Positions 1-15,393 of a stretch of DNA of 15,393 nucleotides are shown one piece after another. The DNA is taken from NCBI GenBank assembly GCA_016292295.1, contig JADNEJ010000431.1, positions 1-15,393 of the forward strand. Direction: 5' to 3'. The position numbers were made by a program, and so were the translations under genes. The notes below the pieces were generated by a model. That model was not told where the DNA came from. It worked only from the letters and a program-made list of their open reading frames with translations, and ran no database searches. The DNA comes from Candidatus Thiodictyon intracellulare (GTDB lineage Bacteria > Pseudomonadota > Gammaproteobacteria > Chromatiales > Chromatiaceae). Position 1 is the first letter of the stretch. Each line of letters opens with the position of its first letter.

Positions 1-55
1 GGCGCCATTTGTTGTGCGCCCGCTGGGGAACATCGAAGTATCGATCAAGAACGGC
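1..55. repeat. 55-bp terminal direct repeat (copy 1), assembly overlap of a circular molecule
   Basis: Bases 1-55 are identical to 15339-15393. The repeat lies inside a coding sequence that reads through the join without a stop. A 55-bp exact overlap inside a gene is what a de Bruijn assembler with k=55 leaves on a circular contig, so I read it as circularity (about 15,338 bp) rather than a biological terminal repeat. Confidence 0.9.
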
Positions 56-163
56 CCCACGACGCCGATCACCTATATTTTAGAGTTCACTTTCGGCGGC
101 GTTCTGGTCGAGCTGCCGGATAGCATTTTGCGGCAAGGCAGCATTCTAAACATGGGGCAATAA
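1..163 (+). CDS. Capsid-like protein, C-terminal part (continues from 14521-15393 across the circular join)
   Basis: Codons run in frame from base 2 to the TAA at 161-163. The first 55 bases duplicate the last 55 bases of the window, and the frame matches exactly, so this is the end of the protein that starts at 14521. After the 55-base overlap the sequence adds 35 residues, giving 326 aa in total. The segment around the join, including PFVVRPLGNIEVSIKN and ILEFTFGGVLVEL, reads as alternating beta-strands. That fits the closing strands of a jelly-roll-like capsid domain (inference; fold not computed). The next gene starts 6 bp after the stop. Confidence 0.85.
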   Translation, partial: APFVVRPLGNIEVSIKNGPTTPITYILEFTFGGVLVELPDSILRQGSILNMGQ

Positions 164-168
164 AGGCC

Positions 169-855
169 ATGGCAGATATTCAAGGGTTCAGCACTCAAAA
201 CGATACGGGCAAGACCAACCGCGAAAGCATGGTCATAGTCCCGGCTGACCTGACCAAAGACGACATAGAGAGGATTTTATTTCGGCAAGAGCCTTTCCCG
301 AAAAGAATCTCGGCCGATATTTTAAAATCTCAATGCGTCTCGGCCTTCAAATATCCGCGCACAAGCCCTGGCGCCAACCGGGCGATCGCCGCGGAGTATT
401 TGCCGGCCTTCATTGATTCAGTCTTTAGACAAGTCGAAGATGAGGCGCCGATCACCGGATCCACGGTGACACCTTTTGCCCCGCGCGGTCAAATCGGCGT
501 GCCAACGATCGCGGCGGCGCCGGCAACCGTGCTTTCCTTCATCGTTCCGAATGGCTATCAGCTTTGGATCGCGGCCTACGCCTTTGATCTCTTCCCAGAT
601 ACGACCAATGAGCTGAATTATGCCTGGCGGCTCTTTGTGAATGGGCAGGATATTCTGAACAAAGGGCAGCAGGGCCTGGTTTTCGGCCGGCCGGTGAAAA
701 ATAATCGGCAGGTGATGCTGGGGACAGACAAATCAACCCAGATCCTGGCGGTGCCAGGGGATGAGATCGCGATCGTTGTCAGCGCGGCCGCCGGCATCCC
801 TGCCAGTGACTTCATATCCGCGACCCTTTTCGGCAATCTGGAGCCTGCATCGTGA
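169..855 (+). CDS. Probable virion protein, beta-rich, 228 aa
   Basis: I do not recognise this protein by name. About the first 95 residues are charged and look helical (DLTKDDIERILFRQEP). From about residue 100 on it is rich in short hydrophobic strands separated by polar turns: VPNGYQLWIAAYAFDLFP, YAWRLFVNGQDI, GDEIAIVVSAAA, and a last strand DFISATLFGNL. The order 'pro-asn-gly-aromatic strand, arg-val-asn-gly strand, gly-asp-glu strand, closing strand' resembles single jelly-roll domains of phage vertex or accessory capsid proteins (inference). It sits directly after the 326-aa capsid-like gene. Its stop TGA overlaps the GTG start of the next gene (GTGA), which suggests translational coupling. 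No catalytic motif, signal peptide or membrane segment is visible. The ATG start is 6 bp after the upstream stop, with AAAGG just before it. Confidence 0.72.
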   Translation: MADIQGFSTQNDTGKTNRESMVIVPADLTKDDIERILFRQEPFPKRISADILKSQCVSAFKYPRTSPGANRAIAAEYLPAFIDSVFRQVEDEAPITGSTVTPFAPRGQIGVPTIAAAPATVLSFIVPNGYQLWIAAYAFDLFPDTTNELNYAWRLFVNGQDILNKGQQGLVFGRPVKNNRQVMLGTDKSTQILAVPGDEIAIVVSAAAGIPASDFISATLFGNLEPAS

Positions 856-1607
856 GCATTCCAGTCTCGATAACTAAAGTTGTATCTACAACTTCAGATC
901 GCGGCCTCAAAGAATTAAGCGTCCCCGGTGATCCAACTGGCTTCACTGGCACCGCTGGGATCCATTATGCGCGCACATTTGTTGGGACTATGTACCTGGC
1001 GGGCATTCCCCAGGCCACGGCCGCGGCGTTGAAAGGTGCTGACTATCTGTCACTGATCCACGGTGGATTAGGCAGCGATCCTTCCAATCAATTTGCCAAC
1101 GTTGGCGGCGTCCTTGATGTGCCTGCCTTTCCCAATCCAGAAGTGACCGGCTATTATAACAGCGGCCCCAATGCGGCCGATCAGCAGGCAAACGGCTTCA
1201 AGAATACCGAAAAAAGCCGGCGAACCAACGACGCAGCTGTCGCCGGCGACGCAACGACTTGGTCGATTGTGGACGGCCGCCGGCGCCTCACCTTTTCGCT
1301 TTTTCTGCGCTCTGGCACTAATCCAGGCTCTGATTTTTTTATGATCGAGGTCTACCGCGACCTGAACAATAGCGATAAAGGCGCTGGCACCTGGGGCGGC
1401 CTTACTACTGACGTGACCAACGCGCAATTGGTCTACCAGTACGGGCCATTTTTGAGCAAGCCCAACACGACCAATCGGCATGCCAACGCTCAAATAATGG
1501 CGCCCGTTGACCTGCCGGCGGGCTGCAACCTTTACATCATTGCCCGGAATATCACAACGCCGGCATCGACCAACTTTATCGCCGGATCCATCCGGCTGGT
1601 CACATAG
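852..1607 (+). CDS. Probable virion protein, beta-rich, 251 aa
   Basis: GTG start at 852, inside the stop of the preceding gene (GTGA overlap). No ATG start is available near it in this frame. The protein is mostly beta-strand and glycine/asparagine-rich loops, with no membrane segment and no enzyme motif that I can see. The stretch from about residue 140 to the end contains clear strands (RRRLTFSLFLRSG, DFFMIEVYRDL, AQLVYQYGPFL, CNLYIIARNI, NFIAGSIRLVT). Position among the capsid-like genes and the strand-rich C-terminus ending in a hydrophobic strand suggest a capsid, spike or vertex protein. Function is inferred from context only. Confidence 0.7.
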   Translation: MSIPVSITKVVSTTSDRGLKELSVPGDPTGFTGTAGIHYARTFVGTMYLAGIPQATAAALKGADYLSLIHGGLGSDPSNQFANVGGVLDVPAFPNPEVTGYYNSGPNAADQQANGFKNTEKSRRTNDAAVAGDATTWSIVDGRRRLTFSLFLRSGTNPGSDFFMIEVYRDLNNSDKGAGTWGGLTTDVTNAQLVYQYGPFLSKPNTTNRHANAQIMAPVDLPAGCNLYIIARNITTPASTNFIAGSIRLVT

Positions 1608-1617
1608 AGGCGCGCGC

Positions 1618-2124
1618 GTGACTTGGCCAAAGCAAAATCCCAACGGCGGCCGCGCCTACGAACAGACCAATTATACGGCCGTCAGTAATGTCAATCTTCC
1701 GCTGGCGATCGCTGCAGGGGCGCAGCTGGATGTATTGATTCCCTGGGGCGTGGATGGCTATACCCGCGGGCTGATGGCTATGACCTTTACCCCGATCCTG
1801 GGGGGCGGCAGCTTTCAAATCCAGGCCCAGCCCTATGGATCTGATGGTCAGCCACTTCCAGGGTCACTTTTTCAGCCCGTCACGCCACTGCTGGGGATGG
1901 GCGGAGCTGGAACGGAAACTTGCCACGTCTCTTGGTTCGATAACACAGAGCCGGGCAACTGGATGCTTGAGCAGGGCGGGGCGCCGCCCGTGATCAATAG
2001 CGGCGGCAATGCTATGAATCCGACTTTTGCCACGAATTCAGCCTATATAAAGTTCAGAATCGACAACCAAACGAGCGCGATTATGACGCTGACTGCCTGG
2101 CAATTTCTTTTGAGCGGTGACTAG
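1618..2124 (+). CDS. Probable virion protein, 168 aa
   Basis: I choose the GTG at 1618, 10 bp after the previous stop (TAG at 1605-1607), with AGAGG 7-8 bases upstream. A further-upstream ATG at 1507 would overlap the preceding gene by 100 bp and add a basic, unstructured stretch. The protein starts with polar residues (TWPKQNPNGGRAYEQTNY) and then consists of beta-strands: NVNLPLAIAAGAQLDVLIPW, RGLMAMTFTPIL, GSFQIQAQPYG, AYIKFRIDN, and a final strand IMTLTAWQFLLSGD. No catalytic or membrane motifs. Its stop is immediately followed by the ATG of the next gene. Context and strand pattern suggest a small jelly-roll-like capsid or spike protein (inference). Confidence 0.68.
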   Translation: MTWPKQNPNGGRAYEQTNYTAVSNVNLPLAIAAGAQLDVLIPWGVDGYTRGLMAMTFTPILGGGSFQIQAQPYGSDGQPLPGSLFQPVTPLLGMGGAGTETCHVSWFDNTEPGNWMLEQGGAPPVINSGGNAMNPTFATNSAYIKFRIDNQTSAIMTLTAWQFLLSGD

Positions 2125-2538
2125 ATGGCAATTGCGCCGCAATATCATGGCAAGGCGGTCACGCCACTAGACGCCAACGGAAATCCGAACAGTCCAACGA
2201 CTCCGACCTATGTTGTTGTGGATTTTCCGTCTGTCTTTGCGTCGGCCCAGGGCGCTCTTATTGCTGGTGACAATTTGATCCTTGCCCCTGTGGCCGGCTT
2301 CAAGTTTAAAATCGTCAGCGTCGTGGTTGATCTCGATGGATCGGTTGTGGATCTGTTCTTCAAGAGCGATACGCCCGGCGCCAGGATCAGCGCTACCACC
2401 TATAATTCCACCAGGCGGCAGCAAGACAATCCCGCCGGCCTATTCATAACGGTGGTTGGGGAAGGGCTTTATCTGAATCTTTCCCTTGCGGCCGCGGTGG
2501 CCTCCTGGCAGATCACCTATTTCCTGATTCCTCAATGA
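2125..2538 (+). CDS. Probable virion protein, beta-rich, 137 aa
   Basis: The ATG directly follows the TAG of the upstream gene (zero spacing), so translation is probably coupled. Visible strands are TYVVVDFPSVFAS, DNLILAPVAGFKFKIVSVVVDLDGSVVDLFFKS, GLFITVVGEGLYLNLSLAAAVASWQITYFLI. 'Gly-phe-lys-phe-lys-ile-val-ser-val' followed by a long strand and an 'NPAGLFITVVGEGLYLNL' segment is like the C-terminal half of small jelly-roll domains in tailless phage spikes and in carbohydrate-binding modules (family-level resemblance, not a match I can prove). No cysteine, no signal peptide, no membrane segment. Exact role unknown. Confidence 0.68.
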   Translation: MAIAPQYHGKAVTPLDANGNPNSPTTPTYVVVDFPSVFASAQGALIAGDNLILAPVAGFKFKIVSVVVDLDGSVVDLFFKSDTPGARISATTYNSTRRQQDNPAGLFITVVGEGLYLNLSLAAAVASWQITYFLIPQ

Positions 2539-2561
2539 TCGTTCAGAGAGGATTTTAAGTC

Positions 2562-3050
2562 ATGGCAGTTGCAGTCACCCAGAGCGTGGGAAATCGTAAA
2601 ATTACGCTGTCGGCCGCTGACCTTGGCCTAGTTCTGCCGCTCGCATATGGAGCGGCCGCGGCTGTTCTTTTCACTACGCCGGCCCTGGCCAGCTTTTTCC
2701 CGGCAAACTTTCAACCAAAGTTTTGCGAAATGGTGGTCCAGTTCACGCCGGCTGGCATCGATACCTATTCAATTCGCTATAAAAAAGTTCTGGCCGGAAT
2801 TACTAGCGGTGACAAAGCCACCACAGGTGGCTTTGTCAGTGCTGCAGCAACGCCGTCAGAAATATGGCTTGCATTCTCGCCAACTAGCAGCGCCACTGGA
2901 TCTGGGGCGGCAATTGGTGGGACGGCAGCAACGCCAGCGGGTTTCGGCTCACTTTTCTTTCCTATAAGTGATGCTGTTTTTTTGTTCCAAAAAACTACCG
3001 GCGTCGCTGGCGGCACCGTCGATGCCGTAGCCATCTCTTTTTCAGAATGA
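2562..3050 (+). CDS. Probable virion protein, 162 aa
   Basis: A good ribosome binding site (AGAGAGGA at about 2544-2551) precedes the ATG. The protein is small, Ala/Gly/Thr-rich and weakly hydrophobic, with alternating strands (KFCEMVVQFTPAG, YSIRYKKVLAGI, SEIWLAFSPTS, DAVFLFQKTTG, VDAVAISFSE). The middle of the protein is low in charge (SATGSGAAIGGTAATPAGFG). It is the last of five consecutive beta-rich genes downstream of the capsid-like gene, so a minor capsid or receptor-binding role is plausible. No domain is recognised with confidence. Codon and base use match the neighbours. Confidence 0.65.
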   Translation: MAVAVTQSVGNRKITLSAADLGLVLPLAYGAAAAVLFTTPALASFFPANFQPKFCEMVVQFTPAGIDTYSIRYKKVLAGITSGDKATTGGFVSAAATPSEIWLAFSPTSSATGSGAAIGGTAATPAGFGSLFFPISDAVFLFQKTTGVAGGTVDAVAISFSE

Positions 3051-3069
3051 AAGCTGGGGAGGATAGAAC

Positions 3070-3255
3070 ATGCTGAATGACGCAAATATGCCGAATCGCT
3101 CTAATCGGGCTTTAGGGGAGACAAAGCCCGGTTTGCCGGCTACGGCGCTTTCCTTGGGAAACGATGCCCTTAAAAGCGCGCAGGAGCCCAAAAAGGTCTA
3201 TTACGTCCAAGTTCAGCATGACGAAATTGTTGATCTGATCGCTGTGAGGGATTAG
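3070..3255 (+). CDS. Small hypothetical protein, 61 aa
   Basis: A strong ribosome binding site GGGGAGGA (about 3056-3062) stands 7 bases before the ATG. The first 40 residues are polar and probably disordered (MLNDANMPNRSNRALGE...). The C-terminal part, KKVYYVQVQHDEIVDLIAVRD, looks like a strand followed by a helix. No family recognised. It lies between the virion-protein genes and the lipoprotein gene; the following ATG starts 2 bp after its stop. Confidence 0.6.
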   Translation: MLNDANMPNRSNRALGETKPGLPATALSLGNDALKSAQEPKKVYYVQVQHDEIVDLIAVRD

Positions 3256-3257
3256 GC

Positions 3258-3434
3258 ATGAAACGGGCCATTTTTATCTGCCTTTTGATGACCTTTTTAC
3301 CCGGTTGCCTGTGGATCAACCTGGTAGACCAGGCTAAGGACGCGGCCGCGCGGGCCCAGGCGGCCGCTGACCGGGCGGAGCGCGCGGCCGATCGAGCTGG
3401 CCAGACCAGGCCGGCGCCCGCGGGAAAGCCTTGA
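3258..3434 (+). CDS. Small lipoprotein, 58 aa (spanin-like candidate)
   Basis: MKRAIFICLLMTFLPGC begins with two basic residues, then a hydrophobic stretch, and ends in a lipobox-like LPGC with Cys17 as the predicted lipidation site. The mature part is an alanine/arginine-rich amphipathic helix (DAAARAQAAADRAERAADRA) followed by a short Pro-rich tail (TRPAPAGKP). Known biology: outer-membrane spanins (Rz1 type) are very short lipoproteins with Pro-rich tails, encoded in lysis regions. Here no inner-membrane partner with a coiled coil overlaps it, so a spanin role is only a suggestion; it could also be a membrane-bound virion or exclusion protein. A GTGAGGG-like sequence at the end of the previous gene serves as ribosome binding site. 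Confidence 0.7.
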   Translation: MKRAIFICLLMTFLPGCLWINLVDQAKDAAARAQAAADRAERAADRAGQTRPAPAGKP

Positions 3435-3491
3435 CGCCGGCGGCCGGCAGCTAGCATAATTGCCTATCTGGCGAATTGCTGGGCCTGGTAT

Positions 3492-3573: not shown

Positions 3574-3894
3574 ATGACTACGAAAAAAAAGGGGCTGGCA
3601 ATCAAGGCACTGCCGGCCGTGTCCGTCATCGTGGGGCTGAATGACCACAAAGCGCTTGGCCGGGTGATCGCGCGCCGGCGGGCGCAGCTGGCCCACACTA
3701 CGCCGGACGGCTTGGACAAGTTCGGATCCGTGGGCTTGGCAGGTCGCCTCCGCCTGTCACCATCCACGATCTATAGAGTAGAAGCAGGCGACCGCTGGCC
3801 CTCTTTCCAGGTGCTGGCGCCCATCCTCAAAGCTTTAGGCCTCGAATTGGCCATCGCTGCGACGGACAAGGGCGCCGACCTGGGAAATTTGTAG
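3574..3894 (+). CDS. XRE-family helix-turn-helix protein, 106 aa (repressor-like)
   Basis: After a basic N-terminus (MTTKKKG), residues about 28-92 form an XRE/Cro-type HTH: LGRVIARRRAQLA (helix 1), VGLAGRLRLSPSTIYRVEAGD (helices 2-3, with the family's 'S..TIYR.E.G.R.PSF..L..I..ALGLEL' pattern), then VLAPILKALGLELAI. An extra loop (HTTPDGLDKFGS, residues 41-52) separates helix 1 from the HTH core, longer than in most family members. There is no C-terminal peptidase or dimerisation domain. The ribosome binding site is GGAG at 3565-3568. Tandem 15-bp repeats upstream suggest autoregulation. A transcriptional regulator of phage genes or an antitoxin-like regulator are the alternatives; no toxin gene is recognisable next to it. 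Confidence 0.85.
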   Translation: MTTKKKGLAIKALPAVSVIVGLNDHKALGRVIARRRAQLAHTTPDGLDKFGSVGLAGRLRLSPSTIYRVEAGDRWPSFQVLAPILKALGLELAIAATDKGADLGNL

Positions 3895-3906: not shown

Positions 3907-4053
3907 ATGTCCAGACATGAAAAGCTAACTATTGGGCAGGACGTTTACCTCAGCGGCCGGCGCGCCCGGCATGCCACGCTGGCAAGTGCCTTGCAGTCAG
4001 CCCTGGGCGACCTGGTTGGGGACAGTTTGGCAGGGGGACTATATGCCCAATAG
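3907..4053 (+). CDS. Very small hypothetical protein, 48 aa
   Basis: An AGGAGG at 3893-3898, starting one base after the first base of the TAG that ends the preceding gene, is followed at good spacing by ATG at 3907. The reading frame gives MSRHEKLTIGQDVYLSGRRARHATLASALQSALGDLVGDSLAGGLYAQ. It is polar at the start, with a helical, alanine/leucine-rich second half and no clear membrane segment. The next gene starts inside its last codons (ATGCCCAATAG, 11-nt overlap). The strong ribosome binding site and the coupled downstream gene are the main support. Function unknown. Confidence 0.62.
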   Translation: MSRHEKLTIGQDVYLSGRRARHATLASALQSALGDLVGDSLAGGLYAQ

Positions 4054-4279
4054 TCCTTTTGAAGGCGTAGACATCACCGCGGGGCCTTTCGTTGATCCCG
4101 GCACCGCGGCCGGCTATGGCCTAGCGCATGGCCTGGCAGCCCGTGACCAGGTCCCGCGTTCAAACTTTATCGATTGGGTTTGTTTCGCTTCATACTTGCA
4201 AGGTTATGGGTTAGGCCTGATAGCCAGGCAGAAAAAACTGGTCGTTCTTAAGGCCTATCAACACGAACACCGCAACTAA
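4043..4279 (+). CDS. Small hypothetical protein, 78 aa
   Basis: I choose ATG 4043 because AGGGGGA lies 6-12 bases upstream and the start overlaps the previous stop (ATGCCCAATAG). A longer version from 4.0 kb upstream (ATG 3932) would lie fully over the previous gene and has no binding site. The protein is MPNSPFEGVDITAGPFV..., with a Gly/Ala-rich middle (GTAAGYGLAHGLAARDQ) and a C-terminal moderately hydrophobic stretch (NFIDWVCFASYLQGYGLGLIA) ending in basic residues. The stretch could associate with a membrane but is interrupted by polar residues. No family recognised. Confidence 0.6.
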   Translation: MPNSPFEGVDITAGPFVDPGTAAGYGLAHGLAARDQVPRSNFIDWVCFASYLQGYGLGLIARQKKLVVLKAYQHEHRN

Positions 4280-4319
4280 ACCAATCTTGGCCGTTGACGG
4301 CCATCATCAAGGGGGCACC

Positions 4320-4769
4320 ATGGCAAAGCGTCAGAAATTGAACAAGCAAGAGATCGAGCAATGGACGGAGAACCAGGCTATGCAGTTCGGCCGCGATCAT
4401 GCCAACGGCGAGACGGATTTCGAGAAAACCGAAATGCTGGAAGCCTCCGACTTTTTCGGCTCTCACATGCTCTTCTACGCCTACCAGGCTGGCTTTCAGA
4501 ACCCTGACAGTTCGGCAGGCGCTGCAGCTGGATCCGCTGACAATGTGGCAATGGCCAAAGCCGTCACTGCCAGCCTGAAAAAGATCGGTGACGCTGTCGA
4601 TGTCATGTCAACGGTTGCCGGCGCCGGCGCCGAAGCGGCCAAGGGCGCTGCTAAATCCGCTGATCGCGCGGCCACGTCAGCCCAGGCCGCGGCCGACGCT
4701 GCCACGGCTGCTACCCAAGCGCTGCAGGCTGTCCAGAGCCTGGTTGCATCCATGAAGAAGCCGGCTTAG
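4320..4769 (+). CDS. Alanine-rich coiled-coil protein, 149 aa
   Basis: ATG 4320 is preceded by AAGGGGGC, which decides the start; the ATG at 4287 has no binding site. The N-terminal 60 residues are charged and helical (KRQKLNKQEIEQWTENQAMQFGRDHANGE...). The C-terminal half (about residue 75 onward) is a long Ala/Thr/Ser-rich helix with heptad-like spacing (AVTASLKKIGDAVDVM... SADRAATSAQAAADAATAAT...). Its composition resembles the helical part of the lipoprotein encoded at 3258. Such helices commonly form trimeric or dimeric coiled coils in fibre and spike proteins, but a scaffold or regulatory role is as possible. No enzyme motif. Confidence 0.68.
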   Translation: MAKRQKLNKQEIEQWTENQAMQFGRDHANGETDFEKTEMLEASDFFGSHMLFYAYQAGFQNPDSSAGAAAGSADNVAMAKAVTASLKKIGDAVDVMSTVAGAGAEAAKGAAKSADRAATSAQAAADAATAATQALQAVQSLVASMKKPA

Positions 4770-4773: not shown

Positions 4774-5019
4774 ATGCCGGAAGTTCGGATCATCATAACG
4801 GACACTGGCAACGATAACATCGATGCCAAATGTTCCGATGACACGGTCAACGCAGCTCTATTCGGCAAGGCCAGCCCATTGGTCGAGCTGACAGGAGCCC
4901 AGCAGCTGGCCCTGGTCATGTGCAAGGCAGCTTACGAATACCTAAAAGAAACAACCCTGCTTAGGAGCAAGCGGCGGATCGTAATTCCGCGCCGCATGCG
5001 CCGAGGACAGCTGCACTAA
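4774..5019 (+). CDS. Small hypothetical protein, 81 aa
   Basis: It starts 4 bp after the previous stop. The N-terminus is a strand followed by acidic turns (MPEVRIIITDTGNDNIDAKCSDD), then a long helix (GAQQLALVMCKAAYEYLKETTLLRSK) and a very basic tail (RRIVIPRRMRRGQLH). The tail may bind nucleic acid or be disordered. The gene ends one base before the stem of a strong terminator, so it is the last gene of its transcription unit. No family recognised. Confidence 0.62.
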   Translation: MPEVRIIITDTGNDNIDAKCSDDTVNAALFGKASPLVELTGAQQLALVMCKAAYEYLKETTLLRSKRRIVIPRRMRRGQLH

Positions 5020-5057: not shown

Positions 5058-5150
5058 GTGCCAGAGGGGCCGCCACAGCCACACCTGACGCCGTACGATG
5101 ACAACGGCTGAAGTATACCCCCCTGGCGTGAGTTTTTCAACCACTTACGC

Positions 5151-5174
5151 GCGCCCGCGGCCTTCCGCGGGCGC
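5151..5174. promoter_or_regulatory. Perfect 10-bp GC hairpin in the leader of the initiator gene
   Basis: GCGCCCGCGG (5151-5160) and CCGCGGGCGC (5165-5174) are perfect inverted copies separated by CCTT. The hairpin is 94 bp after the terminator and ends 6 bp before the AGGGG ribosome binding site of the preferred start at 5194. Placement suggests control of initiator synthesis (attenuation or translation) or a protein-binding dyad. If translation began at 5098 instead, it would be inside coding sequence. Confidence 0.55.
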
Positions 5175-5193
5175 CCTTCTAGGGGTATGCCTG

Positions 5194-8076: not shown

Positions 8077-8520
8077 ATGGGCAAAAAATCTCACAGCAAC
8101 TGGCCGCTGATTATCGGCGGTGCCGCGGTCGCCGGCCTGGCTCTTGTCGGCTTGAGCCAGCACGCCAAAGCCGCGGCAGCGCCCTTTGAGCCTTACGAAG
8201 ATCCCAGCCTGACCAAGCTGCAGGCAGCCAAGGCGATGACGGACAAATTGCACGCCCTTTTGACGGCCAAGGGCTTTGCCGTTTCGCCGGCATACGTCAC
8301 CGACGTCAGCGCGACGGAGTCGATTATTCCCAACAGCACCCTGACCCAGGGCCGCAACTTGGCCGCGGAAAATCAGACCGGCTATGAGACGTTTTACCAT
8401 TTTATGTGGGACTCAAACGGAATTCTAAAGTTCAACAACTACGATGTGAACGATGCCAGCAAGTGGGCAACCTTCACGAGCGATTACAATCAGGCGCTGG
8501 CCTATATTAATGCCCTCTAG
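8077..8520 (+). CDS. N-terminally membrane-anchored protein, 147 aa
   Basis: GGGGGC lies 6-11 bases before the ATG. After MGKKSHSNW comes a hydrophobic segment PLIIGGAAVAGLALVGLS (about 10-27), read as a transmembrane anchor or uncleaved signal; AKAAAAP just after it could alternatively be a cleavage site. The remainder is polar and mixed helix (LTKLQAAKAMTDKLHALLTAKGFA) and strand/turn (TGYETFYHFMWDSNGILKFNNYDV). A ~120-residue soluble part behind one membrane segment fits a phage membrane-associated or secreted protein. No catalytic motif recognised. Its last codons contain the ATG of the next gene. Confidence 0.68.
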   Translation: MGKKSHSNWPLIIGGAAVAGLALVGLSQHAKAAAAPFEPYEDPSLTKLQAAKAMTDKLHALLTAKGFAVSPAYVTDVSATESIIPNSTLTQGRNLAAENQTGYETFYHFMWDSNGILKFNNYDVNDASKWATFTSDYNQALAYINAL

Positions 8521-8788: not shown

Positions 8789-8984
8789 CTAGATTTTTCG
8801 CCTGCCGGCACAACAACGCTTGACTCATAGTCCTAACCCGTCAGCTGCTTTACTGCCAAACTGGCGGCGGCCTTATTGTCAAAAAGATTGTAACAACGCT
8901 GACTTTTAGGCCACGGCCCCACCGTCAAAACCTTAAATAAATATACTGACTATGCGGCGAAAGTTTTTTAGCCCTTTACGTTTC

Positions 8985-9087
8985 GTTTTGGCGGCCGCGT
9001 GACTTCGATCGCTTGGCCGGCGGCTTTGCTCTGCTGCGCGCCGCAAAACCACCAGCCAAGCGATCGAAGCCCCCCGCCCGCCAAAAC
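8985..9087. repeat. Long near-palindrome (36-bp arms, 31-nt loop region)
   Basis: The left arm 8985-9020 and the right arm 9052-9087 are inverted copies. Two perfect blocks stand out: CTTCGATCGCTTGGC (9003-9017) with GCCAAGCGATCGAAG (9055-9069), and GTTTTGGCGG (8985-8994) with CCGCCAAAAC (9078-9087). The 8 bases between the two blocks are only partly matched. The core itself contains the self-complementary CGATCG. It could form a cruciform or a long RNA/ssDNA hairpin; origin or packaging signal are the main options. Confidence 0.85.
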
Positions 9088-9131
9088 TTTTTAAAATATT
9101 TTTGAAGGTAGAGCAAACCCGCATAATTACG

Positions 9132-9144
9132 CCCCCCCCCCCCC
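9132..9144. repeat. Homopolymer run of 13 C
   Basis: Thirteen consecutive C bases between the AT-rich flank of the palindrome and TATAGA. Its length may be imprecise because such runs are error-prone in sequencing. TATAGA (9145-9150) right after it could be part of a promoter for the gene at 9212. Confidence 0.8.
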
Positions 9145-9176
9145 TATAGACGCAGCGCCTGTGAAAGCGTAAAATT

Positions 9177-9204
9177 CCCTTGGTCGAATGTAGCGACCAA
9201 AGGG
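9177..9204 (+). promoter_or_regulatory. Hairpin covering the ribosome binding site of the 479-aa gene
   Basis: TTGGTCG (9180-9186) pairs with CGACCAA (9194-9200) around AATGTAG, and CCC/GGG can extend the stem past a one-base bulge (9177-9204). The right arm runs into AGGGGG, the binding site for ATG 9212. The structure could hide the site in mRNA or be a protein-binding dyad. Confidence 0.5.
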
Positions 9205-9211
9205 GGCACGG

Positions 9212-10651
9212 ATGGGCGGCGCCGGAAGTGGTCGAATGACAGGGAGAGAAGAGCGCGCAACAGCGGCAGCTGCTGCGAAGCTTAAGCGCACCCTGGAAAC
9301 CAACGCATTCTTAGCCCAAGAGGCAGCGCAACGCGGCGATCGTCTTTTCAAGGTCGTGCGCGTCTATGCATCCGGACAAAAGGCAACCTTGGGAACGATC
9401 CATAGCACCCAAGATGCTATCTTGGGCGCGCGATTCGGCGGCGGCGTTTATGAGCTGCACGAATTAGAGCGCGCAACCGAGACCGAAACCGGAAAGATCG
9501 TGCGCGCGATCCTTCATCCCAGCGCCTACCCCGTCAAAAAACAATTTGCCAAAGATCCGCACGAGCTTGAATTAGAGGATGCAACGCTAGACCGCGCAGC
9601 CGGCGGCCCATCGGTTTCTGCGACAGGCTTGGGCAATTTGTCACGAGAAGAAATTTTTCAAAAGGCCAAAGCAGAGGCCCGCACAGAATTCCAGCGAGAA
9701 GAAACCCAAAAGCAAATTGAGCGCCGTTTGGCAGAACTTGATCTGCGCTTTGAACGGATGATGAACGGCGACGGCGGAGGCATGGCCGGCAAGAAGAGCG
9801 CGACGGCCGAGATCCTAGAAATGTTCGATGCCTTTAAAAAATTGATGCCGGCGCCGGCGCCCAACTTCGCAGGCGCCAACTTAAGCCCGGCGCAGCAGAT
9901 GCAAGAAAGCTTGGAACTTTTTAAAACGATGAAAGCAACGCTGTCCGGCCTACAGGCAGAAACCAGCGACGGCAAGATCACCCCCATGGGCGAGAAACTG
10001 ATTTCAAGCCTGACTGATCTTGCAACGCGGGGCTTTAACGCTTGGGAACGCACAAGCCAAGCCACGGCCAGCCGGCCAGCTGCCGCGGGCGCCGTTGATC
10101 GACCTTTCGTCATCGATCAAAGCAATGCCGGCTATGCTCAAACTAAGAAGCCCGCGCCTTCTGCGCCGCCCCAACCTCCCCCAGCAGCCCAAGAGAATAG
10201 CGGATGGGCCCACACTAAGCGTCAGGCACCGCGGCCGGCAGTGACCGCGACGGCCGTTGCTGTCCGATCCAGCAGCTGGCCCGAACCTTTGACGGCGTAT
10301 CAGCCGACGCGCGCAGACTATGGAACCGAAGAAGAGTGGCTACAATTTCAGGATGACATCATGTCCTTTGAACTGATCGAATTTGTTAAAAAAGAAATGG
10401 AGGGCTTGATCGCCGGCGCGCCTGGATCCTCGGTCTTTAAGACTGCCGAAGAGATCCGCGCCCGTTGGATGGATCCGCAAGCGTCGCCGGCATGGCTTAA
10501 ATTGCGCGATGGGCTGCGTTCCTATCCAACCGAAACACTGGTCAGCCATTTTATCGGGATGCAGCCCGCCCTATGCCCTAGCCAACGTCATCGCGATTGC
10601 CTGGCCACTTTGATCGACGTTATCAAGGAAAGGGAAGGGGTCCAAACGTGA
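9212..10651 (+). CDS. 479-aa protein of unknown function with central coiled coil
   Basis: AAGGGGG stands just before the ATG. The N-terminus is Gly-rich and basic (MGGAGSGRMTGREER), then an Ala/Lys helix. Residues about 45-115 form a small folded unit (RLFKVVRVYASGQKATLGTI, AILGARFGGGVYELHELERAT, GKIVRAILHPSAYPV), with a 'RFGGGxYELxEL' element. About 150-190 is a strongly charged helix with coiled-coil character (REEIFQKAKAEARTEFQREE...). A further helical part (FKKLMPA..., LSPAQQMQESLELFKTMKAT) and a long Pro/Ala-rich, probably disordered stretch lead to a C-terminal helical domain (EEEWLQFQDDIMSFELIEFV..., WMDPQASPAWLKLRDGL). No Walker motif, nuclease or membrane segment. First gene after the control region and coupled to the next gene by a GTGA overlap. 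Packaging, scaffold or DNA-associated virion protein are possible. Confidence 0.75.
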   Translation: MGGAGSGRMTGREERATAAAAAKLKRTLETNAFLAQEAAQRGDRLFKVVRVYASGQKATLGTIHSTQDAILGARFGGGVYELHELERATETETGKIVRAILHPSAYPVKKQFAKDPHELELEDATLDRAAGGPSVSATGLGNLSREEIFQKAKAEARTEFQREETQKQIERRLAELDLRFERMMNGDGGGMAGKKSATAEILEMFDAFKKLMPAPAPNFAGANLSPAQQMQESLELFKTMKATLSGLQAETSDGKITPMGEKLISSLTDLATRGFNAWERTSQATASRPAAAGAVDRPFVIDQSNAGYAQTKKPAPSAPPQPPPAAQENSGWAHTKRQAPRPAVTATAVAVRSSSWPEPLTAYQPTRADYGTEEEWLQFQDDIMSFELIEFVKKEMEGLIAGAPGSSVFKTAEEIRARWMDPQASPAWLKLRDGLRSYPTETLVSHFIGMQPALCPSQRHRDCLATLIDVIKEREGVQT

Positions 10652-11220: not shown

Positions 11221-11880
11221 ATGGAAAACCTTGTACGGGTCGAAGCGTATTACCGAAACGCGCAGGGTCAGACAGTTCCAGCAAATCCGCTCAATGCTCT
11301 GATGGCCCAAGATGCCGCGCAAGAATGGGCGGCCTGGCGCGCAGAGGCTGTCGGCCGCGGCTGGGAACTCTTGATCTCCCCACCGGCTGCAGGCCAGGGC
11401 GACTATACGCGGGCGATGTTTAGAAGCCCAGCTGACGCGCAGTGGATCGCGCAGAACGCAACAGCCACGTCGGCCGCGGTAGACTCTTCAACGCACCAGG
11501 CCGGCCGCGCTGTTGATCTTGATCTCGATGCAATGGCTGCGACCTGGTCAGACTACGATTACAACGACCTGGTCGCCATGGCCCGCCGGCATGGCTTCAC
11601 TAATCGGGTCTACACGGCCAACGGTACGGAGCCCTGGCACTTTGACGATGATCCGGTCAAACAAGGCCTCTTTCCATCGATGACGGCGGCCGTCGAAGCG
11701 ATCGGGAATACCACGGCGCAAGTGACGGCGGCCGTTGCGGCCGGCCTGGATACGCCCCAGCTGGCGGCGATCAAAGCAGCTGCAGGATCCCCGTTGGGAA
11801 TCGCCGTTGGCCTGGCGGCCGTCGGACTAGGGATCTGGGCTTTTCGCCGGCGACGGAGGAAAAATGCGGGTAAAGGTTAA
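11221..11880 (+). CDS. VanY-like M15 peptidase with C-terminal membrane anchor, 219 aa
   Basis: Residues 91-101 (THQAGRAVDLD) and 136-141 (TEPWHFD region) are the M15B metallopeptidase motifs: zinc ligands His92, Asp99 and His140, with Glu137 as catalytic base. The family cuts D-Ala-D-Ala or L-Ala-D-Glu-type bonds in peptidoglycan. After the catalytic domain, an Ala/Val/Thr linker leads to a transmembrane segment (PLGIAVGLAAVGLGIWAF, about 191-208) followed by RRRRRKN, so the enzyme is membrane-anchored with the arginines most likely on the inner side. There is no signal peptide. That layout fits a hydrolase sitting in a virion membrane and used at entry, or one used at release. It starts 9 bp after the upstream gene and its end overlaps the next small gene. 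Confidence 0.92.
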   Translation: MENLVRVEAYYRNAQGQTVPANPLNALMAQDAAQEWAAWRAEAVGRGWELLISPPAAGQGDYTRAMFRSPADAQWIAQNATATSAAVDSSTHQAGRAVDLDLDAMAATWSDYDYNDLVAMARRHGFTNRVYTANGTEPWHFDDDPVKQGLFPSMTAAVEAIGNTTAQVTAAVAAGLDTPQLAAIKAAAGSPLGIAVGLAAVGLGIWAFRRRRRKNAGKG

Positions 11881-12043
11881 AATAAAAGAGGCCATTAAAA
11901 ACGGCCGCCCAGTTTACGGCTACGAAGTTCGCAACGAAAAAGGCTATTTGCACGCTGCTAGTCATGGCTATTTTATGAAAAAAAATGCCGTGGCTGATGG
12001 GAAGCGCGTAGCCGAGAACATCAAAAGAACGTATTACCCGTGA
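11864..12043 (+). CDS. Small basic protein, 59 aa
   Basis: CGGAGGAAAA directly before the ATG is one of the best ribosome binding sites in the window. The start lies inside the end of the peptidase gene (17-bp overlap). The protein MRVKVKIKEAIKNGRPVYGYEVRNEKGYLHAASHG... carries many Lys/Arg residues and looks like a small alpha/beta fold with no hydrophobic segment. Its stop overlaps the GTG start of the next gene (GTGA). The basic charge would suit DNA or RNA binding; no family recognised. Confidence 0.7.
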   Translation: MRVKVKIKEAIKNGRPVYGYEVRNEKGYLHAASHGYFMKKNAVADGKRVAENIKRTYYP

Positions 12044-12237
12044 CGCCTGATGAGCAACAGCAGGCGATCGCGGCATTGTTGCAAGCGGGAGTTTCGCAGC
12101 CCGCGGCACGCGCAGCAGCTGAACAGGTAGCAATACAAGTTTTCATGGAAGATTACGGCCCGGCCGTGATCTTTAGTAGTGCGCTGATACTAGGATCGGT
12201 TTTTGCGATCGGCGTTGCAGTGGGAGAAACAAAATGA
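12040..12237 (+). CDS. Small membrane protein, 65 aa
   Basis: GTG start overlapping the previous stop. An N-terminal helix (DEQQQAIAALLQAGVSQPAARAAAEQVAIQVF) is followed by one transmembrane segment (GPAVIFSSALILGSVFAIGVAVG, about 40-62) and a two-residue polar tail. A helical head of this size with one C-terminal membrane segment is common in membrane-containing phage virions and in small holin-like proteins; both stay open. Its stop overlaps the next ATG (ATGA). Confidence 0.7.
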   Translation: MTPDEQQQAIAALLQAGVSQPAARAAAEQVAIQVFMEDYGPAVIFSSALILGSVFAIGVAVGETK

Positions 12238-12644
12238 GATCGACAATGCGACAATCATCGTTGCGCGGCGGCGGCATGGGATCCTGGTTCACGGATATTG
12301 CCAGTAGTGTCGGGATCAACTTGAATCCTACCTATTCGCCGGTATGGCAAACAGCGGTTGCGCCGGCGATCGATGTGGCCAGCACCATCATAACCGGCGT
12401 TCCCGCTGGATCGATCATCAATGCCGCGGCGAACATCTTGGATCCGCACGCGGCATCACCTCCGCCGGTAGCTGGCGCCCCTCAAATGATCTACCCAACG
12501 CCGGTAACACCCGCGGCACAGCCAGCAACGGCTGCCGCTGCACCTGCCAGCAAAACCGGCACCTATATCTTGTACGGCCTGGGCGGCCTGGTCGTGGCCG
12601 GCGCCGGGTATGGCCTCTATCAAGCGTCAAAGAAGAAAAAATAA
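12234..12644 (+). CDS. C-terminally anchored small protein with RQSSLRGG motif, 136 aa
   Basis: GGGAG precedes the ATGA overlap. A second in-frame ATG at 12246 begins the segment shared with the next gene. The N-terminus contains SLRGGGMG (residues 9-16). The middle is hydrophobic and helical (AIDVASTIITGVPAGSIINAAANIL), then a Pro/Ala-rich linker, then one transmembrane segment (YILYGLGGLVVAGAGYGLY, about 111-129) and a lysine tail (KKKK). The topology suggests a tail-anchored virion membrane protein. The LRGG-G/M sequence matches double-glycine processing sites in general form (for example the (M/I/L)xGG-x rule of adenovirus protease), which is only an analogy. Confidence 0.7.
   Translation: MRSTMRQSSLRGGGMGSWFTDIASSVGINLNPTYSPVWQTAVAPAIDVASTIITGVPAGSIINAAANILDPHAASPPPVAGAPQMIYPTPVTPAAQPATAAAAPASKTGTYILYGLGGLVVAGAGYGLYQASKKKK
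12246..12280 (+). repeat. Duplicated 5' module, copy 1 (encodes MRQSSLRGG)
   Basis: Bases 12252-12272 are identical to 12660-12680 (21 nt), and the match extends left to the ATG with one A/G change and right, after a GGC insertion, to ATGGG. Identity extends to synonymous positions. Confidence 0.9.
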
Positions 12645-13016
12645 ATGCAGCGGATGCGGCAATCATCGTTGCGCGGCGGCATGGGGGTCTGGTCGCTCAA
12701 TCCCAATTTATGGGGCCTGACACAAGATCAGGCTACAGCATACGAACAGGCCCAGGCGCAGGCTGCCTTGACAGCGCAACAGGTTGCAGCTCAGGCGGCA
12801 GTTTTAAAGGCGCAGACAGACGCGGCTGTTAATCAAGCTAATCCTGGCATTTTATCGACCTTTTCACAGACCATGCAGGGCACAGTTAAGGCAGCTGGGG
12901 GCGCTTCTAGTCTCTTGCTCTGGGGGGCCGTCATCGGCCTAGGAGTGTGGGCCTACGTTGAAGTTCAAGATTCAAGAAAAACGCGGAAAGCCGCGGCACA
13001 ATTTTTCTCGAAGTAA
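12645..13016 (+). CDS. C-terminally anchored small protein with RQSSLRGG motif, 123 aa
   Basis: It starts immediately after the previous stop, with AAGAAGAAAAAATAA upstream. An in-frame ATG at 12654 begins the sequence shared with the preceding gene. SLRGGMG lies at residues 8-14. Residues about 27-66 form an Ala/Gln-rich amphipathic helix (YEQAQAQAALTAQQVAAQ...). One transmembrane segment follows (SLLLWGAVIGLGVWAYVEV, about 89-107), then a basic tail (DSRKTRKAAAQFFSK). Same overall plan as its upstream neighbour, so the pair look like duplicates that diverged outside the N-terminus, or unrelated proteins sharing a processing or sorting signal. Confidence 0.7.
   Translation: MQRMRQSSLRGGMGVWSLNPNLWGLTQDQATAYEQAQAQAALTAQQVAAQAAVLKAQTDAAVNQANPGILSTFSQTMQGTVKAAGGASSLLLWGAVIGLGVWAYVEVQDSRKTRKAAAQFFSK
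12654..12685 (+). repeat. Duplicated 5' module, copy 2 (encodes MRQSSLRGG)
   Basis: Second copy of the nucleotide module at 12246-12280, 408 bp downstream; one base differs in the codon after ATGCG and one GGC codon is missing. Confidence 0.9.
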
Positions 13017-13025
13017 GGGGGCATC

Positions 13026-13568
13026 ATGAGCAAGGATCGGAAAAAAGGATACATGCACAAATTTGGAGAGATCGCCAAAGGCGGCGCCGCAACGGCCGTT
13101 GTCCTTTATCCGGCGACCAAGCTAGTCTGGGCTCTGGATAGCGCTGCCAAGAATGTCGCGCCCGTTGGCCTGCCCAACTATGCCCGCACGCCCATGGTGA
13201 CGCTGGCCCTGGCCGGCGTTGCTGCGTTGCTGCCGGCCAACTATTGGACTGAAAAGATCGGTGAAATGGTGCTGGCGGCCGGCCTGATCCAGACAACGCA
13301 GCAATATGGCCAGACCGTGCCAGGCCAGCCGGGCACGATCGATGCCTTTGTCAATAAGGGCTTTCAGCCGATCGCAAATCTCGGCATAAAAGGCTACACG
13401 ACCCGCCTACAGGGCTATATCGAACAGCGGCAGATGGCCGGCTATACGATGGGCGCCGCGGCCGATGCTGGCCCCAAGGGCGCTTGGAAGGTCGGCCCCA
13501 TGCACCCTAACGACCAGGTTCGTCGATCAGGACTACGCGGCTACCAAGCAGAACACGTCGGCCGCTAG
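13026..13568 (+). CDS. Membrane-associated protein, 180 aa
   Basis: GGGGGC precedes the ATG. A basic N-terminus (MSKDRKKGYMHK) leads into a weakly hydrophobic segment (GGAATAVVLYPATKLVWAL, about 19-37) and a clearer one (MVTLALAGVAALLPANYW, about 57-74), and a third moderately hydrophobic helix (IGEMVLAAGLIQT). The C-terminal half is polar, and near the end it has VRRSGLRGYQ (residues 165-174), resembling the RQSSLRGG of the two upstream genes. Probably an integral membrane protein of the virion or of the assembly site. No family recognised. It is the last gene before the capsid-like pair. Confidence 0.7.
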   Translation: MSKDRKKGYMHKFGEIAKGGAATAVVLYPATKLVWALDSAAKNVAPVGLPNYARTPMVTLALAGVAALLPANYWTEKIGEMVLAAGLIQTTQQYGQTVPGQPGTIDAFVNKGFQPIANLGIKGYTTRLQGYIEQRQMAGYTMGAAADAGPKGAWKVGPMHPNDQVRRSGLRGYQAEHVGR

Positions 13569-13620
13569 AACGGCCTAAAATCCGGCCTACTATTGGCCAC
13601 AACCGCACGGAGTGTGACTG

Positions 13621-14346
13621 ATGAACGAAACATTGCTTGCCTTTTTACAGAACGCCATCGGGCCCGGCACGCTCAAGATCAAGCGCGTCCAGCTCTGGGA
13701 TCTCTATTCCCGCGTTCCGGTCTATCTGGATGCTGATTTGGCGTCCAAGCCCTGGACCTTGTTCAACTATGCGGCCAAAGGCCCGGCCGTCAACGCCGTC
13801 AATGGCGTGGCCACGTCGCCGCCTTACAAGCCGACGCCGGCCGATACCAATATCGACAGCCCGAACAACAATCCTTACGATATGTTCGTCCACGGCCTGG
13901 CCATGGACTGGCAGAACGTGCAAGGGACGCCCGGCACCGTCGGCGCCGCCAACGACATGGCGCAATGGCCGACGTTGAAACAGGCCCTGCTGTTGGACAC
14001 CTTTGCCCAGCTGACCTTGAACGACACGGACGTTGACAAGCTGACCATGATCGACGCGCCAGCTGCTGGCGGCGTCGTCGGCTTTGGCGCATTCGGCACG
14101 AGCGCGGCGCTAACCACCGGCGCGTCCATGCAATCAGCCAGCAACGGCGCGCCTGATGCCGGCAACTTCCGGAATTATTTCAACGAAGGCCCCTTCTACA
14201 TCGAAAAAAACAGCACCATCACCATGACCGGCGTTTTCGGGAATTCACTGCTGACAGCCAATTTCAGCTACAAGCCGGCTGCTACGTTGGCGCCGACGGT
14301 GTTCTTACGCGCCGATCTTAAAGGCATGCGGATCTGGGGAATCTAA
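13621..14346 (+). CDS. Candidate capsid protein, 241 aa
   Basis: GGAGTG stands before the ATG. The sequence is strand-rich with long polar loops and no membrane segment. Features typical of small capsid jelly-rolls are the early strand LKIKRVQLWDLYSRVPVYL, the DTFAQLTLNDTDVDKLTMI strand pair, a 'NYFNEGPFYIEKNSTITMTGVF' strand pair, and a closing strand FLRADLKGMRIWGI. It is followed by a spacer full of stem-loops and then by a second strand-rich protein, an arrangement like the paired small/large major capsid proteins of P23-77-like viruses (known to be two single jelly-rolls). I cannot confirm the fold. Alternative: a vertex or spike protein. Confidence 0.68.
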   Translation: MNETLLAFLQNAIGPGTLKIKRVQLWDLYSRVPVYLDADLASKPWTLFNYAAKGPAVNAVNGVATSPPYKPTPADTNIDSPNNNPYDMFVHGLAMDWQNVQGTPGTVGAANDMAQWPTLKQALLLDTFAQLTLNDTDVDKLTMIDAPAAGGVVGFGAFGTSAALTTGASMQSASNGAPDAGNFRNYFNEGPFYIEKNSTITMTGVFGNSLLTANFSYKPAATLAPTVFLRADLKGMRIWGI

Positions 14347-14348
14347 GG

Positions 14349-14403
14349 CACTTTGCCAGAGTGTCCCACGGCCGTAGCTGCCGGCGGGACGCTCTGGCAA
14401 GTG
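14349..14403. promoter_or_regulatory. Long stem-loop after the 241-aa gene
   Basis: TTGCCAGAGTGTCCC (14353-14367) pairs with GGGACGCTCTGGCAA (14386-14400) over 15 bp with one G-T pair, and CAC/GTG extends it beyond a bulge (14349-14403). The loop contains the self-complementary ACGGCCGT. No T-run follows. It begins 3 bp after the stop codon, so partial termination, mRNA protection or RNA processing between the two capsid-like genes is likely. Confidence 0.72.
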
Positions 14404-14411
14404 ACCCTGGG

Positions 14412-14491
14412 GCGCGCCTGGCGCGCCGGATCCGTGACTCACAGGCATTTTAGTTTCAAGGGCCGCCCGCCAGGGAAACCTTGTCGGCGGC
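14412..14491. promoter_or_regulatory. Further hairpins in the spacer before the 326-aa gene
   Basis: Two GGCGCGCC palindromes stand side by side (14412-14428) and can pair with one another. Then GCCGCC (14462-14467) and GGCGGC (14486-14491) enclose AGG-GAAA-CCT, giving a second stem-loop. The 174-bp spacer 14347-14520 contains no gene I can support. Confidence 0.45.
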
Positions 14492-14520
14492 ACTAGGCAC
14501 TAAACACTTGGGGGCGAAAC

Positions 14521-15393
14521 GTGGCGCAAAAAGAAGATATTTTTTATGGAGAGGGGAGGCTTTTTGCTTTCCCCCTGCAGGATCTGAACGGAGCGCTTCC
14601 TAATACCCTGGTCCTGACCAGCCAGGCCCAGGCGCCCCTGCAATTCCCCAAAGGCGGCGATTGGGGCATCTATGGCTATTCAGCTTTGGCCGGCGTTGCG
14701 GCCGCCGGTGGCCTGGCCACTAACACGCCGGTCAATATCCAGATCCAAGATCAGAACACGGCCGAAAACCAGTTTCGCCAGAGCAATCAGTCCACGATCA
14801 TCGGCGCGCCCATCGAACATATTTGCGGTAAAGCCGGCAATCCGGCTTATATCTCTTGGCCGCGCACCGTTGAATCAGGCGCGCGCCTCTACCCCTATTT
14901 AGGTTGGGTGGGCGCTGGCGCCGCTCCAACGGGCCGATCGCCCTGGTATGTAACGGCCCATTGCCAGTTGCTGCGCCCTGGCATGGCGGCCGCTGTCCCC
15001 ATCGGTTCGCGTGATTTCCAGCTGCGCCAGTATGGCGGCTACTACGCGACCTATACCGGCCGTTTCACCTATACGGCCGGCAGCCCCTTGGCCGTCAACG
15101 CCGGCGACAGCATTCAGATCCCCATCACTGGAAAAAAGTTCTTTTTTGTCGATTCGCTCTATTGCCGGATGCTGAACGAAACGCTTGGTCCGATCAGCGA
15201 TCTGAACCCGTTGACCCAAGAGGACGAGATCCTAGTCTCGGTCAGAGACACGATCGCCCTAAGCAATTGGAATCAGCCCAGCTACGTCCCTGTGTGGAGC
15301 ATGTTCGGAAGCCGTGGGGCCCGGCCATACTGCCCGCCGGCGCCATTTGTTGTGCGCCCGCTGGGGAACATCGAAGTATCGATCAAGAACGGC
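14521..15393 (+). CDS. Candidate major capsid-like protein, 326 aa in total, N-terminal 291 aa here (continues at 1-163)
   Basis: GTG start with GGGGGC 6-11 bases upstream; the only nearby ATG (14547) is out of frame. The frame is open to the window end and continues from base 56 of the window start, giving 326 aa. The protein is strand-rich with aromatic-rich loops: WGIYGYSALAGVAA, PVNIQIQDQNTAENQF, ARLYPYLGWVG, YVTAHCQLLRPG, DFQLRQYGGYYATYTGRFTY, then DSIQIPITGKKFFFVDSLYCRML, WSMFGSRGARPY and the strands across the join. The second half follows a plan frequent in tailless-phage capsid proteins ('strand-aromatic, FGsrgarPy, P-strand, N-strand, closing F-strand'). At this size it could be a single jelly-roll with extensions or a compact double one. 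Fold and role are inferred, not proven. Confidence 0.72.
   Translation, partial: MAQKEDIFYGEGRLFAFPLQDLNGALPNTLVLTSQAQAPLQFPKGGDWGIYGYSALAGVAAAGGLATNTPVNIQIQDQNTAENQFRQSNQSTIIGAPIEHICGKAGNPAYISWPRTVESGARLYPYLGWVGAGAAPTGRSPWYVTAHCQLLRPGMAAAVPIGSRDFQLRQYGGYYATYTGRFTYTAGSPLAVNAGDSIQIPITGKKFFFVDSLYCRMLNETLGPISDLNPLTQEDEILVSVRDTIALSNWNQPSYVPVWSMFGSRGARPYCPPAPFVVRPLGNIEVSIKNG
15339..15393. repeat. 55-bp terminal direct repeat (copy 2)
   Basis: Identical to bases 1-55; see the first copy. Removing one copy gives a circle of about 15,338 bp. Confidence 0.9.

What the first reader, a model, noticed from the sequence alone, without database searches (positions are those of the whole stretch)
1..15393. 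Complete circular genome of a probable tailless, membrane-containing phage of unassigned type
The ends overlap by 55 bp inside an open gene, all genes are on one strand, and there are two capsid-like and five other strand-rich proteins, at least five small membrane proteins, a membrane-anchored peptidoglycan hydrolase and no tail, portal or terminase gene. That set is known from internal-membrane phages (P23-77-like, PM2-like, FLiP-like), but no protein here is one I can match to those groups by sequence.
Basis: partly seen in the sequence, partly recalled or inferred. Interest (0 to 1): 0.8.

Follow-up and report, generated by a model that had tools for sequence, protein, structure and literature searches.

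The report
Tailless jelly-roll phage without packaging motor
This 15.3 kb circle is very probably the complete genome of a tailless virus of bacteria from a little-known family, whose shell proteins look like those of membrane-lined viruses but in which no DNA-packaging motor could be found.

Summary
The contig ends share exactly 55 bp, and the gene split there is continuous in 15 homologues, so the 15,338-bp circle is real. All 26 ORFs I called lie on one strand. No tail, portal, terminase or packaging-ATPase gene was found. Two adjacent genes (13621, 241 aa; 14521-163, 326 aa) have 26 and 15 metagenomic relatives, eight pairs apparently on shared contigs. Their models (pLDDT 73 and 71) are jelly-roll-like. 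[quoted passage not shown] Against this: sequence similarity to SSIP-1, P23-77, SH1, PM2 and FLiP capsids is at noise, and an enzyme (PHM) ranks above capsids in PDB comparisons. The source assembly fits the ciliate endosymbiont 'Ca. Thiodictyon intracellulare', but the window's composition is foreign to it, so the host is unknown. Best reading: a family-level group, undescribed as far as searched, of tailless, probably membrane-containing jelly-roll phages without a packaging ATPase. Whether the larger protein is a single or double jelly roll is unresolved.

The parts
14521..15393 (+). First 291 codons of the larger capsid gene (326 aa in all, continuing at window 1-163): putative major capsid protein with two beta-sandwich halves
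   Evidence: 15 homologues; model of homologue P0018 pLDDT 71.1, pTM 0.73; fold searches
1..163 (+). End of the larger capsid gene after the circular join (bases 1-55 repeat 15339-15393)
13621..14346 (+). Smaller capsid gene (241 aa): putative single jelly-roll capsid protein with N-terminal helix
   Evidence: 26 relatives over; model pLDDT 73.4, pTM 0.72; fold searches
169..855 (+). 228 aa, no family; possible capsid or spike-associated protein by position only
   Evidence: not folded
852..1607 (+). 251 aa, no family; possible spike or vertex protein by position only
   Evidence: not folded
1618..2124 (+). 168 aa, no family; structural module by position
2125..2538 (+). 137 aa, no family; structural module by position
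2562..3050 (+). 162 aa, no family; structural module by position
3070..3255 (+). 61 aa ORF of unknown function
   Evidence: not scanned against Pfam or PHROGs
3258..3434 (+). 58 aa lipoprotein-like peptide (LPGC); possible lysis/spanin-type or virion membrane protein
   Evidence: hydrophobic segment reached by 1 of 1000 shuffles; no PHROG; lipobox read from sequence
3574..3894 (+). 106 aa helix-turn-helix regulator
   Evidence: HTH_31 E 2.7e-7, HTH_3 E 4.7e-7
3907..4053 (+). 48 aa ORF of unknown function
   Evidence: not scanned against PHROGs
3989..4279 (+). 96 aa ORF of unknown function
4317..4769 (+). 150 aa, unknown
4774..5019 (+). 81 aa, unknown
5098..6720 (+). 540 aa putative replication initiator with winged-helix N-terminus
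   Evidence: phrog_270 E 2.1e-4; HTH_36 E 0.011, below cut-off
6659..7978 (+). 439 aa SNF2-type helicase (start codon uncertain); the only P-loop candidate found
   Evidence: phrog_62 E 2.2e-35; Helicase_C E 1.4e-5; GGGKT
8077..8520 (+). 147 aa with N-terminal hydrophobic segment
8453..8788 (+). ORF with CxxC pairs; its start overlaps the preceding gene and is uncertain
8985..9087 (.). Long hairpin (45-nt arms, 84% complementary) in the 423-nt intergenic stretch 8789-9211; candidate origin or regulatory site
9212..10651 (+). 479 aa, unknown
   Evidence: no family, no phage match
10597..11211 (+). 204 aa transglutaminase-fold protein, possible virion or entry peptidase (start uncertain)
   Evidence: PF01841 E 8.6e-8, above cut-off; SSIP-1 gp34 E 1.9e-4
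11221..11880 (+). 219 aa VanY/M15-type peptidoglycan peptidase with C-terminal membrane anchor
11864..12043 (+). 59 aa basic peptide, unknown
12040..12237 (+). 65 aa membrane peptide
   Evidence: 19 of 1000 shuffles
12234..12644 (+). 136 aa, N-terminal RQSSLRGG, possible C-terminal membrane segment
   Evidence: segment not above shuffles
12645..13016 (+). 123 aa, N-terminal RQSSLRGG, probable membrane segment
   Evidence: 64 of 1000
13026..13568 (+). 180 aa, RRSGLRGY near the C-terminus; hydrophobic stretches not above shuffles

Best explanation
The window is the complete circular genome (15,338 bp) of a tailless icosahedral virus of bacteria, from a family-level group without a described member that I could find. 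Shown: the circle, the one-strand gene order, the conserved adjacent pair 13621 and 14521-163, and the lack of recognisable tail, terminase and packaging-ATPase genes. Supported but not proven: both paired proteins are jelly-roll capsid proteins, the small one a single jelly roll, the large one with two beta-sandwich halves. Inferred: the two proteins build a shell around a membrane carrying the small membrane proteins of 11864-13568; the M15-type peptidase and the transglutaminase-fold protein help entry or exit through the cell wall; the 540-aa initiator and the SNF2 helicase start and assist replication by host polymerase, perhaps at the 8985-9087 hairpin; and the genome is enclosed as the shell forms, without an ATP-driven motor, as proposed for the FLiP and Odin groups.
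Confidence: 0.72

Rival explanations
1. [quoted passage not shown]
For: The model has two halves, each with about eight short or long strands, residues 12-153 and 176-311. Whole-length alignments to GC1, STIV and pithovirus double-jelly-roll capsid proteins in BFVD. FLiP and Odin lack the ATPase; in Odin a conserved gene precedes the capsid gene (passages).
Against: Only the C-terminal half aligned to capsid barrels; no row covered both halves. The conserved Odin gene encodes a small protein without known structure, not a 241-aa jelly roll. No sequence match to FLiP or PM2.
Confidence: 0.38
2. Two-protein version: the two genes are the small and large major capsid proteins of a vertical single-jelly-roll shell, as in P23-77, SH1 and SSIP-1, and the virus is a small, ATPase-less relative of SSIP-1.
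For: Both models point to neighbouring accessions I1ZBH9 and I1ZBI0 with the lengths of SSIP-1 gp46 and gp47. Same small-then-large order as P23-77. SSIP-1 gp34, annotated as structural, has a transglutaminase core like 10597.
Against: That the accessions are SSIP-1 gp46 and gp47 is inferred from length and adjacency, not looked up. That these are SSIP-1's major capsid proteins was not checked (paper not held). Sequence profiles are at noise. P23-77, SH1 and SSIP-1 have the ATPase. Transglutaminase cores are widespread.
Confidence: 0.37
3. Not a virus of its own: a plasmid-like or satellite element that carries beta-sandwich surface proteins.
For: No sequence match to any known capsid; PHM-type enzyme folds rank above capsids; replication genes are plasmid-like.
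Against: No relaxase, partition or resistance family was seen in the scans; P0018 has no match in 72,556 plasmid records; a conserved gene pair with a cell-wall peptidase and membrane peptides fits a virion module.
Confidence: 0.1
4. Host is the purple endosymbiont 'Ca. Thiodictyon intracellulare' rather than another bacterium in or on the ciliate.
For: The contig was binned with this assembly.
Against: GC 57.8% against 63-66% for five sampled contigs and tetranucleotide correlation 0.74-0.78 against 0.96-0.99 among them (a sixth read N). No capsid homologue in 92 other genomes of the wider group or 209 others of the order. No strong short match suggestive of a CRISPR spacer in 8 Thiodictyon genomes (lists capped, no positive control). 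Whole-genome amplification of whole ciliates picks up any circular DNA present.
Confidence: 0.15

Closest known systems
[quoted passage not shown]
   Same: Circular genome, tailless, membrane-containing (review passage); adjacent virion genes gp46/gp47 whose lengths fit the structure-library hits of the two capsid models; a transglutaminase-core protein annotated as structural (gp34).
   Different: 43,788 bp against 15,338 bp; has an ATPase (gp40), integrase, primase and sigma factor; capsid sequences not detectably similar.
Thermus phage P23-77 (Matsushitaviridae) and Haloarcula virus SH1 (Sphaerolipoviridae), kingdom Helvetiavirae
   Same: Adjacent pair of capsid genes, small before large; P23-77 is circular, 17,036 bp; capsid chains of this group are among the fold rows.
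   Different: Both encode a packaging ATPase; no sequence similarity.
Flavobacterium phage FLiP (Finnlakeviridae) and the Odin group
   Same: Tailless jelly-roll viruses without a packaging ATPase (passages); FLiP genome circular with all 16 genes on one strand.
   Different: Smaller (9.2 kb; 7-11 kb); FLiP is ssDNA; no sequence similarity to FLiP; Odin sequences could not be compared.
Sulfolobus polyhedral virus 1 (Portogloboviridae)
   Different: Infects hyperthermophilic archaea; different gene content as described there; no genome comparison was made here.
PM2 and Jorvik (Vinavirales)
   Same: Circular tailless membrane phages of Gram-negative bacteria; Jorvik also has an M15-type peptidase (passage).
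   Different: Both have a P9-type packaging ATPase; no sequence similarity to PM2; Jorvik was not compared by itself, though no phage record matched.

Membership tests
Helvetiavirae (P23-77, SH1; SSIP-1 as unclassified neighbour) | Two adjacent single-jelly-roll major capsid proteins | tested here: inconclusive
   Small protein fits; large protein could be single or double
Helvetiavirae (P23-77, SH1; SSIP-1 as unclassified neighbour) | FtsK/HerA-type packaging ATPase | tested here: not met
   No ATPase family (on part of the ORFs) and no P-loop outside the SNF2 helicase in the 26 ORFs or in six-frame segments of 100 aa or more
Helvetiavirae (P23-77, SH1; SSIP-1 as unclassified neighbour) | Detectable sequence similarity of capsid proteins | tested here: not met
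   Profiles A1, A2, A3 against 740 ORFs of six phage records plus their reversals: best real capsid hit gp47 of SSIP-1, E 0.9
[quoted passage not shown]
   no sequence similarity to FLiP
Finnlakeviridae / FLiP | Circular ssDNA genome | not testable with these tools
   Sequence alone does not tell; no HUH-type motif in the 26 ORFs by one pattern and only two loose HxH sites, a weak sign against rolling-circle replication
Odin group | Capsid gene preceded by a conserved gene, no packaging ATPase | tested here: met
   13621 precedes 14521 and is conserved; ATPase not found
Odin group | Capsid sequence in the Odin cluster | not tested
   Odin sequences are not in the collections at hand
Vinavirales (PM2, Jorvik) | P9-type packaging ATPase next to a P2-type capsid protein | tested here: not met
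Portogloboviridae | Homologous VP4/VP10 capsid proteins | tested here: inconclusive
Caudoviricetes | HK97-type capsid, portal, terminase, tail genes | tested here: not met
   None in Pfam for 20 of 26 ORFs or PHROGs for 24 of 26

The most novel reading that the evidence does not exclude
A bacterial virus lineage that keeps the paired jelly-roll capsid genes of the Helvetiavirae but never had, or has lost, the packaging ATPase: a bacterial counterpart of the ATPase-less states (SPV1 and FLiP) that Krupovic and colleagues (PMC8812541, passages) place at the base of the two capsid lineages. It would let the order of events, capsid-gene duplication before or after acquisition of the packaging motor, be tested. 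In the boldest form it circulates among bacteria living in or on a ciliate.
Probability: 0.3. Interest if true: 0.8.

Novelty: new variant of a known kind. Interest (0 to 1): 0.62.

Why it matters
Tailless jelly-roll phages are under-recorded because they share almost no sequence: none of the seven viral-contig scans found a relative, although 26 relatives of one capsid protein are in the protein database. A genome of this type without a packaging ATPase bears on an open question: how such viruses enclose a 15-kb genome without a motor, and whether the paired capsid genes or the motor came first. The two capsid profiles give a handle for finding more members.

Tried and rejected
Tailed phage: rejected for lack of any tail, portal or terminase family in the ORFs scanned (20 of 26 Pfam, 24 of 26 PHROGs). 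Integrated prophage or chromosomal locus: the window's DNA has no second copy in its assembly, and capsid profiles found only the window in 93, 369 and 210 genomes; in 398 genomes of the phylum two further partial matches at E 8.2e-4 and 9.6e-4 (20.2 and 18.9 bits) were taken as chance and not examined.

Relatives with context: seven viral-contig scans and two genome-contig scans gave pattern matches but no confirmed relative; single-protein scans see close relatives only. tblastn in 50,697 phage records: 13621, P0018, 10597, 9212, 5098 and 11221 without match; the helicase matched four records at 24-27% identity. PDB by sequence: A1 and A2 gave one irrelevant weak hit each (E 0.84, 0.36); 169 none, 852 two weak (E 0.36, 0.41), 10597 none. 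A1 against A2 by hhalign: no support (probability 0.1%), so common descent of the two capsid proteins is not shown. SSIP-1 by profile: in its own 57 proteins gp46 ranked first for A1 (E 0.37) and gp47 first for A2 (E 0.035), but hhalign ranked others first and in a larger set with reversed controls A1 was led by a reversed sequence; I count this as noise. The window helicase does not match SSIP-1 gp43 (E 0.69). Rfam and tRNA: none. 16S in the assembly: none found. Promoter and terminator patterns are about as many as in shuffles (8 against 6.5; 27 against 20.9).
Full report
What was checked. The window is contig C11 of an assembly of 2,961,283 bases in 673 contigs. Its two ends share exactly 55 identical bases. 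The gene cut by the ends is read through in 15 homologues; a profile of them matches the window's last 873 bases at positions 1-290 and its first bases at 273-320, and identity to the closest homologue stays high on both sides of the join. The circle of 15,338 bp is thus real as a sequence; reads were not available. A 55-base overlap is what SPAdes leaves on a circle when its largest word is 55 (recalled).

Where it comes from. A genome of the same genus, G007, has contigs of 6,837,296 and 484,824 bases, exactly the chromosome and plasmid pTs485 of 'Thiodictyon syntrophicum' Cad16 (PMC5944118, passages). An assembly of 2.96 Mb in that genus fits 'Ca. Thiodictyon intracellulare', the purple endosymbiont of the ciliate Pseudoblepharisma tenue: 2.9 Mbp, single ciliates, REPLI-g whole-genome amplification, SPAdes --sc (PMC8195481, passages). 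This identification is inferred. The window has 57.8% GC against 63.4-65.6% in five other contigs of the assembly, and its tetranucleotide correlation with these and with two stretches of G007 is 0.74-0.78, while those correlate at 0.96-0.99 with the largest contig; one further contig read N and was dropped. So the circle is compositionally foreign and may be mis-binned. BLAST of the window against eight genomes of the genus showed only short GC-rich matches besides itself (lists capped, no positive control). Neither of the two ciliate papers mentions phage in the passages searched (0 occurrences; passages and term counts only).

Gene content. I called 26 ORFs, all on one strand, covering 14,244 of 15,338 bases; some starts (6659, 8453, 10597) are uncertain. 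Recognised are a putative replication initiator (5098; phrog_270, E 2.1e-4), a SNF2 helicase (6659; phrog_62, E 2.2e-35), a transglutaminase-core protein (10597; E 8.6e-8), a VanY/M15-type peptidase with a C-terminal anchor (11221; below cut-off) and a helix-turn-helix regulator (3574). A search for GK[ST] found only the helicase's GGGKT and a site in 169 that lacks the rest of a P-loop; a stricter first pattern had missed even the helicase, which is why it was repeated. So a packaging ATPase is very probably absent.

The capsid pair. The 241-aa protein has 26 relatives over two searches (17 proteins and 26, the window's own included in both), the 326-aa protein 15. Eight of the 15 have a longest contig of the same length as a relative of the small protein, so the pair travels together, on contigs up to 17,238 bp. 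Sources are metagenomic; none carries a Pfam domain, and the only names are 'hypothetical protein'. Models: small, pLDDT 73.4, pTM 0.72; large, folded as homologue P0018 because the joined window protein is not in the window letter for letter, pLDDT 71.1, pTM 0.73. The small model is a single beta-sandwich with an N-terminal helix; the large one has two halves of strands, 12-153 and 176-311.

What it works like. Known relatives of this kind are tailless icosahedral viruses with an internal membrane. Here the membrane rests on a cluster of short ORFs before the capsid genes, of which 12040, 12645 and the anchor of 11221 have segments above most shuffles. The cell-wall peptidase and the transglutaminase-fold protein, which SSIP-1 also carries in a protein annotated as structural, suggest entry through a cell wall. 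Without a motor the genome may be enclosed as the shell forms, the mechanism proposed for the FLiP and Odin groups by Yutin and colleagues (PMC5894146, passages). Krupovic and colleagues (PMC8812541, passages) note that SPV1 and FLiP, both ATPase-less, sit at the base of the two capsid lineages and propose that the motor was added later; a bacterial virus with paired jelly-roll genes and no motor would be of direct use there.

Membership. It cannot be filed under Helvetiavirae or Vinavirales, because the ATPase and sequence similarity were tested and not met; nor under Finnlakeviridae, where genome type is untestable and similarity to FLiP is absent. It shares the tested negative and positional features of the Odin group, but its sequences could not be compared. 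I call it a new variant of a known kind. Novelty in print: literature searches listed no paper on this group; most subscription journals and all but a few preprints are not in that library.

Noticed in passing
12246-12272, 12654-12680 and C-terminus of 13026-13568: RQSSLRGG occurs near the N-terminus of 12234 and of 12645, with DNA 96% alike over 27 bases, and RRSGLRGY near the C-terminus of 13026; perhaps a processing or targeting signal of virion membrane proteins.
   Followed up: partly
8985-9087: Hairpin with 45-nt arms in the largest intergenic stretch; folding energy z -5.2, reached by 0 of 200 shuffles; a run of C follows at about 9131. Candidate origin.
   Followed up: partly
13621-14346 and 14521-163: Both capsid models resemble peptidylglycine alpha-hydroxylating monooxygenase more than any capsid in the PDB comparisons.
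   Followed up: no
L024 (SSIP-1) 21296-22210: SSIP-1 gp34, annotated only as a structural protein, has a transglutaminase core (PF01841 E 8.9e-7).
   Followed up: partly
G000 (window's assembly): The assembly fits the ciliate endosymbiont Ca. Thiodictyon intracellulare, and this contig looks foreign to it by composition.
   Followed up: partly
3258-3434: Short lipoprotein-like ORF (LPGC) that could be a lysis protein.
   Followed up: no
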